Shown here: positions 15,646 through 27,792 of the stretch, piece after piece
How the letters are laid out: every line of letters starts with the position of its first letter
Numbering within the stretch: the stretch's first letter is position 1
Program-made: the position numbers and the translations under genes
Assembly: GCF_002024505.1 (NCBI RefSeq)
Contig: NZ_CP019402.1
Span: 3,410,001 to 3,474,000, forward strand
Direction of reading: 5' to 3'
Length of the DNA stretch: 64,000 nt
Origin: Plantibacter flavus
GTDB taxonomy: Bacteria; Actinomycetota; Actinomycetes; Actinomycetales; Microbacteriaceae
The notes under the pieces: generated by a model
Seen by the model: the letters and a program-made list of their open reading frames with translations, nothing else
Databases searched by the model: none
What the model was told of the DNA's origin: nothing

Positions 15646-16323
15646 ATGACCGTCTCCGGCCTCTCCACCGTCTCCCAGGACTACCTCAAGACGATCTGGA
15701 CGACCTCCGAGTGGGCCGACGAGTCGGCCACCGTCAAGCTGCTCGCGGATCGCATGGGCGTCCGTCCCGCGACCGCCTCCGACGCGGTGAAGCGACTCGC
15801 CGCCCAGGGACTCGTCGTGCACGAGCCCTACGGCAGCATCGAGCTCACCCCCGCCGGGCAGGCGCATGCGGTCGCGATGGTGCGGCGGCACCGACTCATC
15901 GAGACCTTCCTCGTCGAGATGCTCGGCTACGGCTGGGACGAGGTCCACGACGAGGCGGAGATCCTCGAGCACGCGGCGAGCGACACGATGATCGAACGCA
16001 TCGACGCCGCGCTCGGCCACCCGATCCGCGATCCGCACGGCGACCCGATCCCCTCCGCCGACGGCACCCCGCACCGCCCGGACGCGGTCCGGTTGAACGA
16101 GGCTCCGTCCGACAGCCCGTTGACGGTGTGCCGCATCTCGGACGCCGACCCGGAGACCCTCCGACACCTGAGCAGCCTCGGCATCGTCCTCGACACCGAA
16201 CTGAGCGTCGACGACCACCGTGCGTTCGCGGGCGAACTCGAACTCCGGCTCACCGCGACCGGCACGCGCCTCACGCTCGGCCGCCTCGCCGCCGATGCCG
16301 TCTGGGTGACGGTCGCCGCCTGA
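15646..16323 (+). CDS. mntR: MntR/DtxR-family metal-dependent regulator
   Basis: This is a 225-residue metal-dependent repressor. The winged helix reads KLLADRMGVRPATASDAVKRL, the dimerisation and metal domain contains MVRRHRLIETFLVEMLGY and DEVHDEAEILEHA, and a C-terminal SH3/FeoA-like domain follows from about residue 150. It faces the MntH transporter gene tail to tail, so manganese rather than iron is the likely signal. A TAGACT -10-like box at 15634-15639 lies only 6 bp before the ATG, suggesting a leaderless transcript. It probably binds the GTTAG..CTAAC sites upstream of mntH. Confidence 0.87.
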   Translation: MTVSGLSTVSQDYLKTIWTTSEWADESATVKLLADRMGVRPATASDAVKRLAAQGLVVHEPYGSIELTPAGQAHAVAMVRRHRLIETFLVEMLGYGWDEVHDEAEILEHAASDTMIERIDAALGHPIRDPHGDPIPSADGTPHRPDAVRLNEAPSDSPLTVCRISDADPETLRHLSSLGIVLDTELSVDDHRAFAGELELRLTATGTRLTLGRLAADAVWVTVAA

Positions 16324-16339
16324 TCGCCGGCAGCTCCTC

Positions 16340-16391
16340 TCGCCCGTCTTCAGGCGGATGAGCGCTCGTTCGCCCGTCTTCGGGCGGATGA
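16340..16391. terminator. Two direct 22-bp hairpin repeats between convergent mntR and mntH
   Basis: TCGCCCGTCTTCAGGCGGAT (16340 on) and TCGCCCGTCTTCGGGCGGAT (16370 on) repeat with a 30-bp period. Each forms a CGCCCG/CGGGCG-type stem. The position between two gene ends suggests bidirectional termination. Confidence 0.6.
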
Positions 16392-16404
16392 ACCGCCGGG
16401 CGGA

Positions 16405-17649
16405 TCACCCGAAGAAGGTCAGCACGATGAGCGCGACGTTCAGCGAGACGATGAGTGCGACCACGACCCAGGCGAACACCCGGGTGGCGAGCTGGTCGAC
16501 ATGGACCCCCATGATCCGCCGGTCGCCCGTGTAGCGCACGAGCGGGATGAGCGCGAAGGGGATGCCGAGGCTGAGGAACACCTGGCTCAGCACGAGCGCG
16601 GTGGTCGGGTCGATACCCGCCGCCAGGATGACGAGCGCCGGGATGAGGGTGATCACCCGTCGGGCGAGCAACGGGATGCGCACCTTGAGGAGCCCGCCCA
16701 TGATCGCCGCTCCCGCGTAGGCGCCCACCGAGGTCGAGGCGAGCCCGGAGGCGAGCAGCCCGATGGCGAAGATCACGCCGATGACGGGCCCGAGCGCGGC
16801 GGTGATCGCCGCGTGCGCGCCCTCGATCGAGTCCGTCCCGTCGACACCGCCGAGCGATGCGGCCGCGAGCAGCAGCATCGCGATGTTCACCGCTCCGGCG
16901 AGGACGAGTGCCGCCGCGACGTCCCAGCGGGTCGCCACGATGAGCCGACGGATGGCACCGTCACTCGTCTGGACGCCGTGCCGGTCCCTGCTGAGCGAGG
17001 AGTGGAGGTAGATCGCGTGCGGCATGACCGTCGCGCCGAGCATGCTCGCGGCGAGCAGGACCGTCGCCGTGCCCTCGAACCGTGGCACGATACCTCCGGC
17101 CGCGGCACCCCAGTCGACGGGACTGACGAACAGGCCGGCGAGGAATCCGACGGCGATGACGGCGAGGAGCGTCAGGATGGCGAACTCGAAGTGCCGCTGG
17201 CCGTACCAGTTCTGCACGGCGAGGAGCACGATCGAGAAGACCCCCACGATGACGCCGCCGAGCACGAGCGGGATCCCGAACAGCAGGTGGAGCGCCACGG
17301 CGCCGCCGATCACCTCGGCGAGGTCGGTCGCGGCGGCGACGAGCTCCGCCTGCGCCCAGTAGAGCCGACGCGGCCCGGTTCGCAGTCGTGAGCCGAGCAA
17401 CTCGGGCAGGCTCTGCCCGGTGACGAGGCCGAGCTTGGCGGAGAGGTACTGGACGAGCACGGCCATCGCGTTCGCGGCGACGAGCACCCACACCAGCAGG
17501 TAGCCGTACTGGGCTCCCGCCGTGAGGTTCGCCGCGACGTTCCCGGGATCGACGTAGGCGATCGCCGCCACGAAGGCGGGTCCGAGCAGGAACAGGAGTC
17601 GCGGTCCGCGGGGCGCGCGGGTCGTCGGAGCAGCGAGGTCGGTGGTCAC
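16405..17649 (-). CDS. mntH: Nramp-family Mn2+/H+ symporter
   Basis: This is a 414-residue inner-membrane protein with 11 likely helices. Helix 1 carries the metal-binding DPGN at residues 34-37, and helix 6 carries MPHAIYLHS, both diagnostic of Nramp/MntH. It imports Mn2+ with protons. The GTG start at 17649 lies close to a TAACAT -10-like box, so the message is probably leaderless. Overlapping inverted repeats (17659-17697) and the neighbouring mntR gene indicate manganese-dependent repression. Confidence 0.93.
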   Translation of the reverse strand: MTTDLAAPTTRAPRGPRLLFLLGPAFVAAIAYVDPGNVAANLTAGAQYGYLLVWVLVAANAMAVLVQYLSAKLGLVTGQSLPELLGSRLRTGPRRLYWAQAELVAAATDLAEVIGGAVALHLLFGIPLVLGGVIVGVFSIVLLAVQNWYGQRHFEFAILTLLAVIAVGFLAGLFVSPVDWGAAAGGIVPRFEGTATVLLAASMLGATVMPHAIYLHSSLSRDRHGVQTSDGAIRRLIVATRWDVAAALVLAGAVNIAMLLLAAASLGGVDGTDSIEGAHAAITAALGPVIGVIFAIGLLASGLASTSVGAYAGAAIMGGLLKVRIPLLARRVITLIPALVILAAGIDPTTALVLSQVFLSLGIPFALIPLVRYTGDRRIMGVHVDQLATRVFAWVVVALIVSLNVALIVLTFFG

Positions 17650-20416: not shown

Positions 20417-21208
20417 TCAGCTGCGGTTCGCGACCGGTCGGGAACCCGCCGGGCGGGTCCCCTCGAACAGGATCCGGTAGCTGAATCCGGCGATCAGCGC
20501 GCCGATGATCGGGAACACGATGAACACCCAGACCTGCGCGAGCCAGTCGCCCCCGCCGAAGATGGCGGTCGCGATGGAGCGCGCCGGGTTGATCGAGCCG
20601 TTGTCGATCGGGATCGCGATCAACAGGAACAGCGTGAGGGCGCCGCCGATGGCGATCGGCGCGAAGCCAGCGGCGGCCCGGGTGTGCGTGACGCCCAGGA
20701 TGACGTACAGGAAGAGGGCGGTGATGACGACCTCGATGACGATCGCCGAGACGAGTCCGAATCCGCCGGGCGAGAGCTCACCGAAGCCGTTCGAGACGAA
20801 GCCGCTTGCGACGGCCTTGTCGAGGAATCCTGCCGGGCCGCCGGCCGCGAGGCCGAAGACCGCCAGTGCGCCGAGGAACGCTCCGACGAGCTGCGCGAGG
20901 ATGAACGTCCACGTCGCACGCCAGGGGAACCGACCGGCGGCGGCCAGCCCGAGCGTCACCGCCGGGTTGAAGTGCCCGCCGGAGACGGGGCCGAACGCGT
21001 AGGCGGCGATGGTCACCGAGAGGCCGAGGGCGATCGCCACCCCGAGGAAGCCGACGCCCAGGGGGTTCGACGTCTCTTCGCCGAAGAACGCGGAGAAGGT
21101 CGCCGTCCCGACGAGACCGAAGACGAGCAGGAAGGTGCCCGCGACCTCGGCGAGCAGCTGCGACGCGGTCGTCGGTTCGACGGAGGGTGGGACTTCCGGG
21201 GAGGACAT
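20417..21208 (-). CDS. MIP-family aquaporin / glycerol facilitator
   Basis: This is a 263-residue channel with six membrane helices and both half-helix signatures: HFNPAVTLG and SINPARSIA. The AqpZ-like spacing and the absence of an obvious glycerol-facilitator insertion favour a water channel, but selectivity-filter residues were not modelled. The ATG at 21208 starts MSSPEVPP, followed by the first helix LLAEVAGTFLLVFG. The gene stands alone between a terminator hairpin and a GntR-like regulator gene transcribed the same way. Confidence 0.88.
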   Translation of the reverse strand: MSSPEVPPSVEPTTASQLLAEVAGTFLLVFGLVGTATFSAFFGEETSNPLGVGFLGVAIALGLSVTIAAYAFGPVSGGHFNPAVTLGLAAAGRFPWRATWTFILAQLVGAFLGALAVFGLAAGGPAGFLDKAVASGFVSNGFGELSPGGFGLVSAIVIEVVITALFLYVILGVTHTRAAAGFAPIAIGGALTLFLLIAIPIDNGSINPARSIATAIFGGGDWLAQVWVFIVFPIIGALIAGFSYRILFEGTRPAGSRPVANRS

Positions 21209-21329: not shown

Positions 21330-21998
21330 TCAGTGCACCTCCAGGTCCTGGAGCGGGACCTGGAGCCGGAAGATGTGCTCGATCGCGAGCTCCGCGCCGA
21401 CGGCGTCGCCCGAGGCGATCGCGGATCGGAGGTGCGGGTACCCGACGCGCAGATCCGACCAGTCGACCGTCTCAGCCGACCGCGTCGCCACGACGCGGTA
21501 GATCAGTGCGCCGATCACGTCCTTCGTCGCCGTGACGAGGACCGGGTTCTCGCAGTGTTTCAGGAACCGGTCCACGAGCCCCCAGACGCAGCGGCCGTGC
21601 GCGTCGGCGTCCTCCGCCGCCACGGTCGTCATGGTGTGCTCGACGAACGCGAGGAGCTCGGCCCGCTGCCCCGGGGTCAAGGTCGGGACGGTGACCCGGA
21701 CGACGCCGCTGACGAGCGCCCCGAGGGTCTGCAGCACGGCTGTCCGATCCTCGGCGCGTGGCTGCGCGACACGGGTGTGCCGTTGCGGTGCCGTCTCGAC
21801 CAGTCCGACGCGCTCGAGTTCCCGGAGTGCTGCGTGGACCGCCTCGCTCGGAGCGTCGAGCCACTCCCGGAGTTCCGCCTCGATGAGCAGTTCACCGGAG
21901 GCGAGCGTCCCGTCATAGATCGCGTTGCGGATCCGCTCGGTCACGGACTCACCTGCGGGAGACGGCCGCGACCCGGACGGTCCATCGGGGTTCGGCAT
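21330..21998 (-). CDS. GntR-family-like transcriptional regulator
   Basis: This is a 222-residue protein. The N-terminal winged helix contains ESVTERIRNAIYDGTLASGE and LREWLDAPSEAVHAALREL, the typical GntR opening. The C-terminal helical domain (about residues 75-222) resembles FCD effector domains but lacks an obvious full metal-binding His set. GAGGAA precedes the ATG at 21998. It is transcribed in the same direction as the channel gene that ends 32 bp upstream, so it may belong to the same transcript as the cyclase and channel genes. Confidence 0.75.
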   Translation of the reverse strand: MPNPDGPSGSRPSPAGESVTERIRNAIYDGTLASGELLIEAELREWLDAPSEAVHAALRELERVGLVETAPQRHTRVAQPRAEDRTAVLQTLGALVSGVVRVTVPTLTPGQRAELLAFVEHTMTTVAAEDADAHGRCVWGLVDRFLKHCENPVLVTATKDVIGALIYRVVATRSAETVDWSDLRVGYPHLRSAIASGDAVGAELAIEHIFRLQVPLQDLEVH

Positions 21999-22030: not shown

Positions 22031-23452
22031 CTACCGGCCGATCGTACCGCGGACGATCCCCGCCTCGGCGAGCGCCGCCTGCGCCTGCCGATGCTTGTTG
22101 TCGATGGAGGCGCCGATCTCCTGCGCCAGCCGGGGCTTGCTCCGCACGAGCTGATCGATGGTGGACAGCGGCATCCGCAGGACCAGGGTCGTGCCGTCGG
22201 CGATCGCGGCGGCCATGGCGACCTCCCTCGTGAGCGCCGTCTGGCCGATGAAGTCGCCGACGCCGAGTCGTTGGAAGGTGATGAGCCCGTCCGTCGTCGG
22301 CACGGCGAGATGGACGCCGCCCTCGACGAGGAACCGCATCGCTCCGGGGATGGTTCCCGCCTGCTGGATGGTCTCCCCCGGCCCGTACCGTTCGAGCGTG
22401 CACGTCCGGGCGAGGTCGTCGTAGTCCTCCTCACGCGCGTGGAGCGTGGGGGCCAGTGCGGCGATGGCACTCCGCAAGCGCTCCGGCGTCGCGATCGGGT
22501 CGGAGCCGTCGCCGTCGAGCGCGAGACCACGGCGGCGCGAGGCGTACCAGAGCCAGGCGCGGAACAGGGCGACGGCGGCGTCGGCCGTGGACGGCCCGGA
22601 CACGGGGAGGGTGACGGCGAACCGCGCGGCACCGAGGTAGGACGCGGACACCACGTCCCCTGGCTCGAGCATCGGAAGGCCCGAGCCGACCTCGCGGAGC
22701 AGCCGGAGCACGTCGTCCGGCGGGTCGTCGGTGGAGAAGGTCACTTCGACGCTCGCGGTGTAGGCGCCGACGGGCTGACTGAGGTTCGTGAACGACGACC
22801 CGGCGAGCGACGAGTTCGGCACGATCTGGATACCGTTGCCGGTGTCGAGGTGCACCGCACGCCAATTGACCTCGACCACGCGACCACGGACATTCCCGGT
22901 GTCCAACCAGTCCCCCAGTTTGAAGGGCTGCTCGAACAGCAGCAGCAGTCCGGAGATGACCCCGCCGACCGCGTTCTGGAGGGCGAGGCCGATCACGATC
23001 GAGGTGACGCCGAGCGCGGTGACCAGGCCGCCGATGTCGGCGCCCCACACCCACGAGAACAGGATGGCGAGTCCGATGAGGATCAGCGCGAGCCGAGCGA
23101 GGTCCACGAAGATCGACGGGATGCGGTCACGCCACGAGCCCTCCTCCGCGTTGGCGAAGAGCGCCACGTTGAACGCCGACAGGATGAGCAGGATCACGAG
23201 GAACCCGAGGACCGTTCCGACGATCCGGACCCAGATGAGGTCGTCCGCCCGCAGCGAAGCGAACACCAGGAGCGCGAACACCGCGCCGACCGGCACGACG
23301 TAGTTCCGCATGAGTCGTACCGGCTTGGCCGCGGCGTTCCCGCGCCGGGTCAGTGCGCCCAGCACCTCGGTGAGGACGATGAGGAGGACCGGGACACCGA
23401 CCGCGAGCGCGATGGCCCAGGGGAACCACGCCTCCTGCCACACCTGCGTCAT
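22031..23452 (-). CDS. MscS-family channel with C-terminal cyclic-nucleotide-binding domain
   Basis: This is a 473-residue membrane protein with four or more helices in residues 10-175. The pore-lining stretch is ALGVTSIVIGLALQNAVGG and the MscS beta domain follows (FEQPFKLGDWLDTGNVRG, VPNSSL). Residues about 335-440 form a cNMP-binding barrel (RYGPGETIQQAG, FIGQTALTREVA). It belongs to the bacterial cyclic-nucleotide-gated branch of the MscS superfamily. In the phosphate-binding cassette the usual GE is GQ, and the arginine normally seen before the second Ala is missing, so canonical cAMP binding is doubtful. The ATG overlaps the stop of the cyclase-like gene by 4 bp. Confidence 0.88.
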   Translation of the reverse strand: MTQVWQEAWFPWAIALAVGVPVLLIVLTEVLGALTRRGNAAAKPVRLMRNYVVPVGAVFALLVFASLRADDLIWVRIVGTVLGFLVILLILSAFNVALFANAEEGSWRDRIPSIFVDLARLALILIGLAILFSWVWGADIGGLVTALGVTSIVIGLALQNAVGGVISGLLLLFEQPFKLGDWLDTGNVRGRVVEVNWRAVHLDTGNGIQIVPNSSLAGSSFTNLSQPVGAYTASVEVTFSTDDPPDDVLRLLREVGSGLPMLEPGDVVSASYLGAARFAVTLPVSGPSTADAAVALFRAWLWYASRRRGLALDGDGSDPIATPERLRSAIAALAPTLHAREEDYDDLARTCTLERYGPGETIQQAGTIPGAMRFLVEGGVHLAVPTTDGLITFQRLGVGDFIGQTALTREVAMAAAIADGTTLVLRMPLSTIDQLVRSKPRLAQEIGASIDNKHRQAQAALAEAGIVRGTIGR

Positions 23453-25695
23453 GACGTCGTCCCTGCCACGACCTGCCAGACGGCCTGCGGACCCCCGCGC
23501 GTCTCCACGGTGCCGGCGGCCTCGAAGGTGACGGTGTCCTGCATGCGGTCGCGCACCCGCTGGCTGACGAAGATCCCGGCCCGACCGGAGACCGACTGGA
23601 CCTGGTTGGCGAGACTGACCGCGTCACCCCACATGTCGTAGGCGAGACTCGTGCGACCGACGAGGCCACTCGTCACGACACCCGTGTCCACGCCGATCCG
23701 GAGCGTCAGTTCGGCCTGGTGCTGGGCGTTGAAGCGTTCGACGATCGTCCGCATCTCCAGCGCGAAGTCGAGGGTCCTGCGGACGTTGTCGACGCGGGGC
23801 ACGATGAGGCCGCAGCTCGCGAGGTAGCCCTCCCGCAGCGTCCGCACCTGCTCGATCCCGAGTCGTTCCGCCGCCTCGTCGAAGCTGCGGACGAGGGCGT
23901 TGAGCATCGACAGCTCGCGCTCCGGGTCGAGGCCTCGGGTGAGGTCGTCGAATCCGACGAGGTCCGCGAAGATGACCGACACGTCCTGGTGGACCTCGGA
24001 GATGGTCTCCTCGCCCTCCTTGTAGCGTTTCGCCACCGTCGCCGGCATGAGCGTCAGCAGGAGCTTCTCGTTCTCGGCGCGCTGCTCGTCGATGAGTTCC
24101 TGCTTCACCCGGAGGCTGCGACTCATGTCGTTGAAGGCCGCGCCCAGGTCGCCGAACTCGTCACGCCTGTTGACCGGTACCTCGACGCTGTAGTCACCGG
24201 CGGCCACGCGCCGCACCGCGCCGACGAGGGACCGCACCGGGCGTGCGAACACCTGCGCCAGCAACAGCGAGAGCAACGACACGACGACCACGATCGCCAG
24301 CACGGAGATGATGAGGTTGCGCGTGAAGTCGGTGACCGGCGCGAAGGCCTCCGACGCGTCGATCCGCGCGACGAGCACCCACTGGAGCCCGTCGATGTCG
24401 AGTGGTGTGTACGCCGTCAGGTTCTCCCCACCGAGGTAACCACGACCGATGAGCGTGCCGGTCTCCCCGGCGAGCGCCCGCTCCACGGACTGGGTTCGGG
24501 TCGGCTGGATCTCGATCGTGCCCTTGACGTCGACCGCGCGCTGCGCGTCCTGCGGTGGCGTGCCGGCCGCGACGGACTGCTTGAGATACGCCTTCGGGTC
24601 CTCGATGAGCAGTCGGGACGTCGAGCGCATCAGCTGATCGGGTCCGGCGAGGTAGGTCTCGCCGGTCTCGCCCAGGCCGTCCTGCTTCCATTCCCCGCCA
24701 CTCGTCATGATCGAGTTGATCTGCTCGATGGGCACCTGCAGCGCCAGGACGCCGTCGATGCGGCCATCCTGCCCCACCGGTGAGAAGATCCACTGCGTGG
24801 GGACGTTGAGCGAGGGCTGGTACCGCTCGAAGTCGGTGATGCCCGTGTAGTCGACCGCGTTGGACCGCAGGGCCTTCGTGAACCCGTCGCCGAGGACGCC
24901 ACCCTGGTACGGGCCCGTCAGCACGTTGGTCCCGAGGTCCGGTCCCTTGAACGCGCTGTAGACGACGTCACCCTCGTCGTCGATGAGGAGGGCGTCCTCG
25001 TAGCCGAACCGGTTGATGATCTCGCGGAAGTAGTCGTTGTAGGTCGCGTTGACGGCCGACCACGTGCTCCCGTCACCGGCGTCGTCGACCGTGATCGCCT
25101 GGTCGTAGTCGAGATCGGTGGGCGTGTAGACCGACTGCAGGTAGGTCTGGGCCGGGTTCGTCGGGATGAAGGCCTCTGGATCCGCCGTGTCGCCGGTCCG
25201 TTCGTTGAGCGCGGGGACGAAGGTGTCCGTGTAGAAACGGTCGACCTCCGCAGCTCGCGCCGGCTCGACCGGCTGCTCCTCGAGCTCCTGGAACGCGTCG
25301 TGGTACCGGTTCATCGCATCGACGACGGTCGTGCCACGGGTGTAGACGACGAGCGAGTCCGCCGTCTGGCGGTAGTAGTTGGTGATCTCGCGGGCACGCG
25401 ACTCGCGCAACTCGGTCAGTCGCTCGAACGACGCCTGTCGGAGGGATTCACTGCCGGAGAGGTACCCGACGATGCCGGTCACCACCGACGCCCCCACGCT
25501 GACCAGCAGCAGCATCACCAGGAGTTTCGACTGGATGCTGAAGCCGGGGCGGCCGAAGCGACGACGCCCGAGCCTCCGGGACCGCGCGACCGAGGACGGC
25601 GCTGGAGGGATCGGAGGACCCGTCGTGGAGGCGTCCACGGGCGGAGTGCCGTCACCTGACGGGGGTCCGGATGGTGCGTTCACAGCTGCGGTCAT
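23449..25695 (-). CDS. Membrane sensor with class III nucleotidyl cyclase-like domain
   Basis: This is a 748-residue protein. The Pro/Arg-rich N-terminus leads to a membrane helix (residues about 56-80), a large extracytoplasmic sensor (about 85-455, Cache-like), a second helix (about 461-482), a HAMP domain (about 483-535) and a class III cyclase domain (about 568-720). One metal Asp is present (Asp578, IFADLVGF). Other catalytic positions differ: Arg618 for the substrate-recognising Lys, Glu622 for the second metal Asp, and Ser694 and Gln698 for the transition-state Asn and Arg (WGDAVSLANQ). It may be inactive or make a different product. The downstream channel gene overlaps it. Confidence 0.85.
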   Translation of the reverse strand: MTAAVNAPSGPPSGDGTPPVDASTTGPPIPPAPSSVARSRRLGRRRFGRPGFSIQSKLLVMLLLVSVGASVVTGIVGYLSGSESLRQASFERLTELRESRAREITNYYRQTADSLVVYTRGTTVVDAMNRYHDAFQELEEQPVEPARAAEVDRFYTDTFVPALNERTGDTADPEAFIPTNPAQTYLQSVYTPTDLDYDQAITVDDAGDGSTWSAVNATYNDYFREIINRFGYEDALLIDDEGDVVYSAFKGPDLGTNVLTGPYQGGVLGDGFTKALRSNAVDYTGITDFERYQPSLNVPTQWIFSPVGQDGRIDGVLALQVPIEQINSIMTSGGEWKQDGLGETGETYLAGPDQLMRSTSRLLIEDPKAYLKQSVAAGTPPQDAQRAVDVKGTIEIQPTRTQSVERALAGETGTLIGRGYLGGENLTAYTPLDIDGLQWVLVARIDASEAFAPVTDFTRNLIISVLAIVVVVSLLSLLLAQVFARPVRSLVGAVRRVAAGDYSVEVPVNRRDEFGDLGAAFNDMSRSLRVKQELIDEQRAENEKLLLTLMPATVAKRYKEGEETISEVHQDVSVIFADLVGFDDLTRGLDPERELSMLNALVRSFDEAAERLGIEQVRTLREGYLASCGLIVPRVDNVRRTLDFALEMRTIVERFNAQHQAELTLRIGVDTGVVTSGLVGRTSLAYDMWGDAVSLANQVQSVSGRAGIFVSQRVRDRMQDTVTFEAAGTVETRGGPQAVWQVVAGTTS

Positions 25696-25896: not shown

Positions 25897-27792
25897 TCAG
25901 GCGGTGACGGCCTGCTGCGCGTAGAGCGTCGCGTACACGCCGCCGGCGGCGAGCAGCTCCTGGTGGGTGCCACGCTCCACGATGCGCCCGCGATCGAGCA
26001 CGAAGATGACGTCGGCGTGCACGACGGTCGACAGGCGGTGCGCGATCGATACCGTCGTGCGTCCGCGGGTCGCGTCGTCGAGGGCGACCTGGACGACCCG
26101 TTCGGAGATCGTGTCGAGGGCGCTCGTCGCCTCGTCGAGGATGAGCACCTCCGGGTCCTTCAGCAGCACGCGCGCGATGGCGATGCGCTGCTTCTCACCG
26201 CCGGACAAGCGGTAGCCGCGTTCCCCGACGAGCGTGTCGTAGCCGTCCTCGAACCGAGCGATCGTCTCGTGGATGTTCGCGGCGCGGCAGGCGGCCTCGA
26301 GCTCGTCGAGGGTCGCGTCGGGCTTCGCGTAGCGGAGGTTCTCGGCGATCGTCGCGTGGAAGAGGTAGGTCTCCTGGCTGACGATGCCGATGCGGGAGAC
26401 GAGGGACTCCTGGGTGACGTCGCGGACGTCGGCGCCCGCCACCATGACCCGGCCGTCCGACACCTCTTGGAAGCGCGGGATGAGGTAGGAGATGGTCGTC
26501 TTGCCCGCTCCCGAGGGTCCGACGAACGCGGCGAACTGTCCGGGTTCGATCGTGAAGGAGACCCCGTCGAGGGTGGGGGTCGAGTCGTCCTGGGCGTCGG
26601 CGTAGCGGAAGGTGACGTCGTCGAAGCGGATCTGCGGTGCGACGCTCGGGAGCGGTGCGGCCCCGGGGCGGTCGGCGATCGCGGGCTTGAGGTCCAAGTA
26701 CTCGAAGATCCGCGCGAAGAGGGCTCCGGAGGTCTGCAGGTCGAGGGCGACCCGCATGACGCCCATGAGCGGGAACAGCAGGCGGGCCTGGATGGTGGTG
26801 AAGGCGACGATCGAGCCGGCGGTGACGTCCGCGGCCCCACCGGTGATGAGCCAGCCGGCCACGAGGTAGACGATCGCGGGGATCGACGACAGGAAGATGT
26901 TCACCATCGCGAAGAACCACTGTCCGCTCATCGCCTGGCTGACCTGGAGGCGGATCTGGGTGCGGTTCTCGGCGCTGTAGCGCTCGACCTCGGTGTCCTG
27001 GCGGTTGAAGCTCTTCGCGAGGAGCACGCCGGAGACGCTCAGGGCCTCCTGCGTGATCGCGGTCATCTCCGACAACGACTCCTGCGTCTTCGTGGCGATC
27101 CGCGCCCGGACCTGACCGACGCGGCGCTGCGCGATCACGAGGATCGGCATGAGGATGAGGGCGACGATCGTCAGCTGCCAGTTGAGGATGAGCATGGCGA
27201 CGAGCGCGGAGATGACCGTCACGGTGTTGCCGAGCACGCTCGAGACGGTGTTGGTGAGGACGTTCGCGACGCCACCGACGTCGTTCTGGAGGCGCGACTG
27301 GATGATGCCCGTCTTGGTGCGGGTGAAGAAGCTCAGCTCCATCGCCTGCAATTGCGAGAACAGCTTGATGCGCAGGGCGCCCATGACGCTGTTGCCGACG
27401 GTCGCCGTGAGGTAGGTCTGCCAGACGCCGAGCAGCGCCGCGATGATGAACAGCGCCACCATCGCGCCGACGATCTCCGCGAGGGCGACGAGGTTCGGGC
27501 TGCCACCGTCGGTCGGGAACAGGCCGACGTCGAACGCCTGCTTGACGAGCAGCGGTGGGAGCACCGCGAGGGCGGCACCGATGACGACGAGCACCATCGT
27601 GAGGATGATCTTGGCGCGGAAGGGCACGAACAGCGCGACGATGCGCTTGCCGAGGTTCGGGATCTTCGGCGCCTCGGCGTTGAGCGCCTTCTGCGCCGCC
27701 GTGTCGCCACCGCTGACGCGACTGCCCGCGCGGGGTCCGCCGCCCCCGGGTGCACCGCCGCGTGGCCCGCCCCGTCCGCCGTGCATGCTCAT
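25897..27792 (-). CDS. ABC exporter, fused membrane and ATPase domains
   Basis: This is a 631-residue half-transporter of the MsbA/multidrug type. The Gly/Arg/Pro-rich N-terminal tail (about residues 1-45) precedes six membrane helices (about 50-340). The ATPase domain has Walker A GPSGAGKTTISYL, the Q-loop region GIVSQETYLFHAT, signature LSGGEKQR and Walker B VLILDEATSALD. It probably homodimerises to export lipids or drugs. The gene stands alone; an inverted-repeat element lies 51 bp upstream of its start. A second in-frame ATG lies two codons later. Confidence 0.88.
   Translation of the reverse strand: MSMHGGRGGPRGGAPGGGGPRAGSRVSGGDTAAQKALNAEAPKIPNLGKRIVALFVPFRAKIILTMVLVVIGAALAVLPPLLVKQAFDVGLFPTDGGSPNLVALAEIVGAMVALFIIAALLGVWQTYLTATVGNSVMGALRIKLFSQLQAMELSFFTRTKTGIIQSRLQNDVGGVANVLTNTVSSVLGNTVTVISALVAMLILNWQLTIVALILMPILVIAQRRVGQVRARIATKTQESLSEMTAITQEALSVSGVLLAKSFNRQDTEVERYSAENRTQIRLQVSQAMSGQWFFAMVNIFLSSIPAIVYLVAGWLITGGAADVTAGSIVAFTTIQARLLFPLMGVMRVALDLQTSGALFARIFEYLDLKPAIADRPGAAPLPSVAPQIRFDDVTFRYADAQDDSTPTLDGVSFTIEPGQFAAFVGPSGAGKTTISYLIPRFQEVSDGRVMVAGADVRDVTQESLVSRIGIVSQETYLFHATIAENLRYAKPDATLDELEAACRAANIHETIARFEDGYDTLVGERGYRLSGGEKQRIAIARVLLKDPEVLILDEATSALDTISERVVQVALDDATRGRTTVSIAHRLSTVVHADVIFVLDRGRIVERGTHQELLAAGGVYATLYAQQAVTA

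What the first reader, a model, noticed from the sequence alone, without database searches (positions are those of the whole stretch)
22031..25695. Cyclase-like sensor and MscS/cNMP channel operon with matched degeneracy in both nucleotide sites
Seen: a Cache-HAMP-cyclase protein and an MscS channel with a cNMP-binding domain overlap by 4 bp (ATGA). In the cyclase, by my alignment, the substrate Lys is Arg618, the second metal Asp is Glu622 and the transition-state Asn and Arg are Ser694 and Gln698; only Asp578 is standard. In the channel, the phosphate-binding cassette has GQ for GE and lacks the phosphate-contacting Arg. Known: class III cyclases need these residues, and bacterial cNMP-gated MscS members normally keep the cassette Arg. 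Inference: either both act without a nucleotide, by direct contact, or they use a different nucleotide made and read as a pair. A membrane sensor coupled to its own channel through an altered signal would be new.
Basis: partly seen in the sequence, partly recalled or inferred. Interest (0 to 1): 0.75.

Follow-up and report, generated by a model that had tools for sequence, protein, structure and literature searches.

The report
Dead-cyclase sensor paired with ion channel
A membrane sensor that looks like a cyclic-AMP-making enzyme but has lost its active site is encoded together with an ion channel in many actinobacteria, which suggests that the sensor works the channel by touch rather than by a chemical messenger.

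Summary
In this Plantibacter chromosome a Cache-HAMP-cyclase protein overlaps by 4 bp an MscS channel ending in a cNMP-binding fold, and both nucleotide sites are degenerate. This belongs to an old, conserved two-gene unit. Of the 80 best-matching named loci 78 have the channel directly downstream, as do 30 of 30 loci from a class-wide draw (own genome included). The second metal Asp is never D in 79 readable named loci, the Lys is R or H, and the cassette Glu is absent in 76 of 76 channels. Unlinked relatives are canonical (16 of 17 actinobacterial loci, 4 of 4 rhizobial full-length relatives). A second, three-gene lineage lost the other metal Asp. Yet the cyclase domain is under strong purifying selection (dN/dS 0.04-0.07). 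The metal position drifts instead of taking one new residue, which argues against a new nucleotide. I favour a pseudo-cyclase receptor gating its channel by contact; contact is inferred. One premise fails: 13 of 13 other MscS-cNMP channels also lack the cassette Arg at the aligned position. Mycobacteria carry the unit too, so some annotated 'adenylate cyclases' there are probably not enzymes.

The parts
23449..25695 (-). Cache-HAMP-cyclase-like membrane sensor, 748 aa (pseudo-cyclase)
24316..25473 (-). extracytoplasmic sensor region, residues about 75-460, double-Cache-like
   Evidence: PF02743 below cut-off but precomputed for the same protein P0001; confident model, pLDDT blocks 82-97
24109..24264 (-). 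HAMP domain, residues 478-529
   Evidence: PF00672, 58.8 bits
23473..23997 (-). class III cyclase fold, residues 567-741, catalytic residues lost
23809..23856 (-). former substrate-Lys and metal-Asp loop, residues 614-629 (R618, R621, E622)
23602..23616 (-). former transition-state Asn/Arg segment, residues 694-698 (S694, Q698)
23449..23452 (-). 4-bp ATGA overlap of the two genes
22031..23452 (-). MscS-type channel with C-terminal cNMP-binding fold, 473 aa
22778..23098 (-). pore helix and beta domain, residues 119-225
   Evidence: PF00924 over cut-off and PF21088 below it (19.6 against 23.1 bits); YnaI best PDB sequence match
22103..22435 (-). cNMP-binding fold, residues 340-450
22199..22261 (-). 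degenerate phosphate-binding cassette, residues 398-418 (Q404, no cassette Arg, conserved TALTR)

Best explanation
The two genes form a conserved actinobacterial receptor-channel unit. A Cache-like domain outside the membrane binds or senses an external cue; HAMP and the helix after it pass the change to a dimer of cyclase-fold domains that no longer make any nucleotide. These domains act as a signalling body that touches the cNMP-fold ring of its own MscS-type channel and changes the channel's tendency to open. Shown: the operon, its conservation, co-inheritance, loss of the catalytic residues, intact predicted folds, purifying selection. Inferred: absence of catalysis in the test tube, physical contact, gating of the channel, and the nature of the cue.
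For: Linkage: 78 of the 80 best of 561 relatives have the channel directly downstream; 30 of 30 class loci, own genome included. Family-wide loss: in 240 listed homologues no K618, and D578 with D622 together in only 9; 0 of 79 readable named loci have D622. Unlinked relatives intact: 16 of 17 phylum loci have all seven catalytic residues, the other has R for K; no channel-like hit on either strand of their short loci. 4 of 4 rhizobial full-length relatives have all seven, with no channel-like hit in their 12-14-kb loci. A second lineage with cyclase-channel-cyclase lost the first metal Asp in 7 of 7 cyclases examined. Selection: dN/dS 0.038-0.072 in the cyclase domain against 0.075-0.193 in Cache. 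Position 622 drifts while Y624, L625 and S627 are invariant in 240 of 240. Co-inheritance r = 0.944 over 76 pairs, highest of 1000 permutations 0.116; two units in one genome each sort with their own partner type. Own genome: this is the only class III cyclase found, no CYTH, no cNMP-binding protein over cut-off except the channel.
Against: No interface or complex was predicted or measured; co-inheritance fits a diffusible signal as well. One degenerate cyclase in a Mycobacterium MAG (L067) has no channel in its 10.2-kb locus. Nine of 240 homologues keep both metal Asp (all with R618; linkage not checked), and one of 30 class loci has D622 though with N at 578. The cNMP fold is intact and the substrate Asp D687 is kept in 238 of 240, so some ligand binding is possible. 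MscS-cNMP channels of other bacteria are degenerate too. The correlation was not corrected for the species tree.
Confidence: 0.55

Rival explanations
1. Ligand sensing without catalysis: the pseudo-cyclase pocket and/or the cNMP fold still binds a nucleotide, nucleoside or other small ligand made elsewhere in the cell, and the pair integrates it with the external cue.
For: D687 kept in 238 of 240; basic residues (R or H, rarely K) in place of K618 in 236 and of G621 in 239 of 240; conserved TALTR-like cassette motif, R409 in 72 of 76 named loci and 120 of 120 listed proteins. Precedent: trypanosomatid PKA has cNMP domains that lost the cassette Arg and bind purine nucleosides (PMC10959531, passages read).
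Against: Metal and phosphate contacts are lost without a conserved replacement (622 drifts; K733 and K735 lost). The cassette Glu is also lost here. No ligand was tested.
Confidence: 0.25
2. Altered messenger: the cyclase makes a different cyclic nucleotide with a changed active site and the channel reads it through a matched, changed cassette.
For: Both sites are changed in the same operon in the linked pairs that were readable on both sides.
Against: No fixed new residue set: 622 is E, G, T, A, S, N, Q, K or R; 694 and 698 vary, 698 even within the genus. The three-gene lineage lost a different metal residue. Class III cyclases work by two-metal catalysis (established knowledge; seen here only as a reference title in PMC4215837).
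Confidence: 0.08
3. Ordinary cAMP pair with weak activity: Arg and Glu stand in for Lys and Asp, and the enzyme still feeds a cAMP-gated channel.
For: Single changes can be tolerated: Ma1120 works with Ala in place of the Asn (PMC4215837, passages). One otherwise canonical unlinked relative has R for K (L156). Nine of 240 homologues keep both metal Asp.
Against: 622 is G, A, T, S, N or Q in most homologues, which cannot bind metal as Asp does. The cassette Glu is lost in 76 of 76. No other maker or reader was found in the genome.
Confidence: 0.07
4. The two genes are merely co-transcribed and the proteins act independently.
For: Other neighbours are also partly conserved, e.g. an ABC exporter in 33 of 81 loci, window included.
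Against: Among ORFs of nine reference loci compared with all 81, only the cyclase (81) and channel (77) are near-universal; a second lineage has the same partners in another gene order; paralogous units keep their partners.
Confidence: 0.05

Closest known systems
bCNG channels (MscS superfamily with a cyclic-nucleotide-binding domain; Caldwell 2010, Malcolm 2012, seen only as references in PMC4560390)
   Same: MscS pore and beta domain plus C-terminal cNMP-binding fold
   Different: Cassette Glu lost in 76 of 76 readable named loci, coupled to a cyclase-like receptor gene; gating by cyclic nucleotide not tested. In an unrooted tree 13 channels of the unit form one side of a branch with 100/100 support against 13 proteobacterial ones
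Class III adenylate cyclases: Rv1625c/Cya, and Cache-HAMP cyclases of Sinorhizobium plasmids
   Different: Those have D, K, D, D, N, R, K intact, and the rhizobial loci show no channel; here the Lys, second metal Asp and phosphate Lys are lost
Mycobacterium tuberculosis Rv2435c/Rv2434c gene pair
   Same: Rv2435c has a double Cache and is called an adenylate cyclase (PMC4822843, passage). Rv2434c is a transmembrane protein said to be 'possibly cyclic glycine-binding' [sic] and 'involved in cAMP signaling' (PMC11205783, passages); that it is an MscS-cNMP protein is my recall. The same unit is in Mycobacterium genomes here (L064, L069). Likely the counterpart
   Different: Its sequence was not fetched, so orthology is not tested
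Trypanosomatid PKA regulatory subunit (nucleoside-binding cNMP domains)
   Same: A cNMP fold that lost the cassette Arg and cyclic nucleotide control (PMC10959531, passages)
   Different: There an Ala became a ribose-binding Glu; here the canonical Glu is itself lost, and the protein is a channel

Membership tests
Class III nucleotide cyclase | class III catalytic-domain fold | tested here: met
Class III nucleotide cyclase | two metal-binding Asp | tested here: not met
   D578 present, second is E622; 0 of 79 readable named loci have D there
Class III nucleotide cyclase | substrate-specifying Lys/Asp pair (adenylate type) | tested here: not met
   R618 for Lys (no K in 240); Asp D687 kept
Class III nucleotide cyclase | transition-state Asn and Arg | tested here: not met
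   S694 and Q698 in the window; N in 48 and R in 69 of 79 readable named loci
Class III nucleotide cyclase | cyclase activity | not testable with these tools
   needs protein
bCNG channel | MscS pore and beta domain fused to a cNMP-binding fold | tested here: met
bCNG channel | phosphate-binding cassette Glu and Arg | tested here: not met
   Q404; no R at aligned position. Note that 0 of 13 other MscS-cNMP channels have the Arg in the aligned column, so the feature may not define the family
bCNG channel | gating by cyclic nucleotide | not testable with these tools
   needs electrophysiology
double-Cache receptor | dCache_1 profile over its cut-off | tested here: inconclusive
   28.4 bits, cut-off 45; PF02743 precomputed for the same protein (P0001)
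Rv2435c/Rv2434c orthologues | reciprocal best match to the M. tuberculosis pair | not tested
   sequence not fetched; other Mycobacterium loci match

The most novel reading that the evidence does not exclude
A bacterial receptor-gated ion channel made of two proteins: a Cache receptor whose former adenylate cyclase domain has become a gating lever, directly docked on a former cyclic-nucleotide domain of an MscS channel, so that both halves of an ancestral second-messenger pathway were kept as protein parts after the messenger was dropped. In another actinobacterial lineage two different dead cyclases flank one channel gene and may form a heterodimeric receptor.
Probability: 0.45. Interest if true: 0.85.

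Novelty: new variant of a known kind. Interest (0 to 1): 0.62.

Why it matters
These proteins are annotated, in Mycobacterium too, as adenylate/guanylate cyclases (names); most of the channel-linked subfamily probably makes no cyclic nucleotide, which would correct counts of 'cyclases' used in cAMP studies. If contact gating is right, it is a way by which an external chemical cue could control an MscS-type channel in bacteria, and an example of a second-messenger pathway collapsing into a protein complex. The intact rhizobial relatives and the second lineage make the idea testable.

Tried and rejected
Altered-substrate cyclase: not the best reading because no alternative residue set is conserved. 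Heterodimer rescue inside the genome: only one PF00211 domain was found there; in the three-gene operons the two cyclases do not complement each other, since all 7 examined lack the first metal Asp. Pseudogene decay: rejected by dN/dS. Natural fusion of the two proteins in Leifsonia aquatica (L029): it is a frameshift near the cyclase end, not a clean fusion. A third conserved gene: none near-universal among ORFs of nine reference loci. The structure search for the whole sensor is filled by cyclases and lists no separate Cache entry; that is no evidence against a Cache fold.

Papers: the 2004 survey PMC2447327 names both Rv2435c (10 times) and Rv2434c (3 times) by search count, but only abstract, outline and references are held, so it may already note the missing residues or the gene pair. 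Searches for bCNG with mechanosensitive, for MscS with cNMP domain and adenylate cyclase, for mechanosensitive channel with adenylyl cyclase and Mycobacterium, for inactive or pseudoenzyme cyclases and for Rv2435c showed no title or abstract start describing the unit; one search listed 15 of 35 and 15 of 20 papers. bCNG papers are known to me by recall and as references only.

Five of the 78 linked loci have interrupted frames (L018, L029, L036, L084, L085). Spacings are extrapolated from tblastn ends. In one search the first column of the residue string is the neighbour of the metal Asp (my off-by-one); one search repeats it with the right column. Two distant hits, L010 and L011 (about 30% identical, no channel-like hit), keep both metal Asp but read as gap or T at the substrate Asp, and L011 has R for K. 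L157 and L161 are the same place. L166, a relative cut by a contig end, was not counted. In the tree, 17 rows from protein searches were labelled linked without checking their loci, and long branches meet. A search in 60 relatives at E up to 1e-10 found the full-length cyclase only in this genus, 6 of 7 with the window's own genome counted, and two partial hits elsewhere, so distribution within the family is patchy. Class searches gave 18 of 246 genomes (channel) and 30 of 394 (cyclase), own genome included. The 13 control channels were chosen by me for variety from 50 listed of 222 plasmid records; their neighbours were looked at only for L114-L116. In one search an Arg stands at 411 in 19 or at 415 in 18 of 76 channels, so a shifted cassette Arg cannot be excluded for those; Plantibacter has none there.
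Full report

Alignment to Rv1625c confirms R618 for the substrate Lys, E622 for the second metal Asp, S694 and Q698 for the transition-state pair. D578 is standard, and so is D687. G621 has become Arg, and the canonical Lys at positions 733 and 735 are mostly gone in the family. The catalytic roles of these positions are established knowledge for class III cyclases (recalled); PMC4215837 (passages) names the same classes of metal, substrate and transition-state residues and warns that the Asn is dispensable in one active enzyme.

A CONSERVED UNIT. A scan of one genome for each of 84,980 species with a 22-protein alignment gave 561 relatives, of which the best 80 loci were kept. In 78 of 80 the channel follows on the same strand; in the 73 with an uninterrupted cyclase frame the extrapolated spacing is at most 15 bp, and 27 overlap. 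Hosts include Microbacterium, Agromyces, Curtobacterium, Leifsonia, Leucobacter, Occultella, Propionicimonas and Mycobacterium. The two exceptions are an orphan in a Mycobacterium MAG (L067) and Microbacterium sp. 8M (L091), where the cyclase match stops at residue 614 and a weak remaining channel match (E 0.026) begins at residue 436, as one deletion through both genes would leave. An even draw of 394 genomes of the class found the cyclase in 30, own genome included; all 30 loci examined (of 33 matches) have the channel downstream. Cyclase and channel distances correlate at r = 0.944 over 76 pairs, and the two units of Microbacterium sp. Root166 (L041, L076) each group with their own partner type.

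A FAMILY-WIDE DEAD SITE. In the 79 readable named loci position 622 is G 29, E 13, Q 12, S 10, A 6, N 4, T 2, K 2, R 1 and never D; 618 is R 78, H 1. In the 120 best homologues of a Mycobacterium cyclase (mostly mycobacterial where named) 622 is N 111, T 4, A 3, S 2 and 698 is Q 108, R 12. In 240 homologues together there is no K618; 9 keep both metal Asp. In the class draw one of 30 has D622, and that one has N at 578. Position 622 ranks 23rd in variability of 175 domain positions (2.57 bits) while Y624, L625 and S627 never vary. That is drift at the metal site within a frozen loop, not a new fixed chemistry. Between the window and five same-genus genomes the cyclase domain has dN/dS 0.038-0.072, lower than Cache (0.075-0.193), so it is kept for something, and the residues say not for catalysis.

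CONTROLS. Seventeen relatives from other actinobacterial genomes, with no channel-like hit on either strand of their short loci, have all seven residues D, K, D, D, N, R, K in 16 cases; the exception has R for K. Four full-length Cache-HAMP-cyclase relatives on Sinorhizobium, Ensifer and Pararhizobium plasmids, about 34% identical to the window's protein, have all seven and no channel-like hit within their 12-14-kb loci. In the tree the canonical and the unit's cyclases are separated by one branch (92/92), with the caution that long branches meet and 17 rows were labelled linked without locus check.

A SECOND LINEAGE. Three genomes outside the class, same phylum, have cyclase-channel-cyclase (L158, L159, L160), with 4-bp overlaps at some junctions, and a fourth has channel-cyclase at a contig end (L161). 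All 7 cyclases examined lack the first metal Asp (T, H, A or G), although the three upstream ones keep the Lys and two of them the second metal Asp. Three of these channels join ten of the two-gene unit against 13 proteobacterial MscS-cNMP channels with 100/100 support (unrooted). A loss by another residue in another lineage, again beside the channel, is the best single argument that what is shared is lack of catalysis.

THE CHANNEL SITE. Position 404 (canonical Glu) is Q 40, L 29, H 5, I 2 in 76 readable named loci, Q 96, L 12, H 11, D 1 in 120 listed proteins, and never Glu in the 30 class loci. The aligned cassette Arg is missing in Plantibacter; 36 of 76 named loci have an Arg at 411-415, off the aligned position. 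A TALTR-like motif is conserved in its place (R409 in 72 of 76). But 13 MscS-cNMP channels of proteobacterial plasmids, none found through a cyclase, have the Glu in only 8 and the Arg in the aligned column in 0 (3 have one next to it). So a degenerate cassette is common in this channel class, and only the complete loss of the Glu is characteristic here.

NO MESSENGER IN SIGHT. In the host genome this is the only PF00211 match; there is no CYTH match and no PF00027 protein over cut-off except the channel, one weaker match aside. The abstract of the 2004 survey says that the actinobacteria then sequenced have only class III cyclases (PMC2447327, abstract). Two other MscS-type matches exist in the genome, so the channel is not the cell's only valve of this kind.

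MECHANISM. The simplest account is that an ancestral Cache-HAMP cyclase and a cNMP-gated MscS channel once formed a messenger pair and that the messenger was dropped when the proteins came to touch. Steps shown: unit, loss, selection, folds. Steps inferred: contact, gating, cue. The strongest rival is ligand sensing without catalysis, because D687, the Arg-rich loop and the cNMP fold remain, and trypanosomatid PKA shows that a cNMP domain can change ligand after losing the cassette Arg (PMC10959531, passages).

NOVELTY. Components are known kinds (MscS-cNMP channels, class III folds, Cache receptors). No NCBIfam model listed scored near its curated cut-off for either protein. I found no paper describing the unit in the listings, but the full text of the 2004 survey, which names both Rv2435c and Rv2434c, could not be read, so the gene pair in M. 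tuberculosis may have been noted before.

Noticed in passing
21330-21998 (-): A GntR/FCD-type regulator starts about 30 bp after the channel stop and may be co-transcribed in Plantibacter; its homologues are near the unit in fewer than 8 of the 81 loci.
   Followed up: partly
20417-21208 (-): An aquaporin/MIP gene (PF00230) lies two genes downstream of the channel on the same strand, an osmotic theme; homologues near the unit in fewer than 8 of 81 loci.
   Followed up: no
25897-27792 (-): An ABC exporter (PF00664 and PF00005) lies directly upstream; a homologue is near the unit in 33 of 81 loci, window included.
   Followed up: partly
L158, L159, L160: Three-gene operons cyclase-channel-cyclase in actinobacteria outside the class, with two differently degenerate cyclases around one channel.
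   Followed up: partly
L091: Microbacterium sp. 8M: one deletion seems to have removed the cyclase domain and most of the channel together; the channel remnant is a weak match, E 0.026.
   Followed up: partly
L029: Leifsonia aquatica: a frameshift near the cyclase end runs the frame on into the channel; sequencing error or real, not settled.
   Followed up: partly
L067 and L069: A Mycobacterium MAG has one linked unit (L069) and one degenerate cyclase without a channel in its locus (L067).
   Followed up: no
15646-17649: A DtxR/MntR-type metalloregulator with a FeoA domain (+) sits beside an Nramp metal transporter (-).
   Followed up: no
P0016 and P0129: Plantibacter sp. RU18 seems to carry a second, divergent cyclase and channel; both are listed with a contig of the same length as P0004 and P0125.
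   Followed up: no
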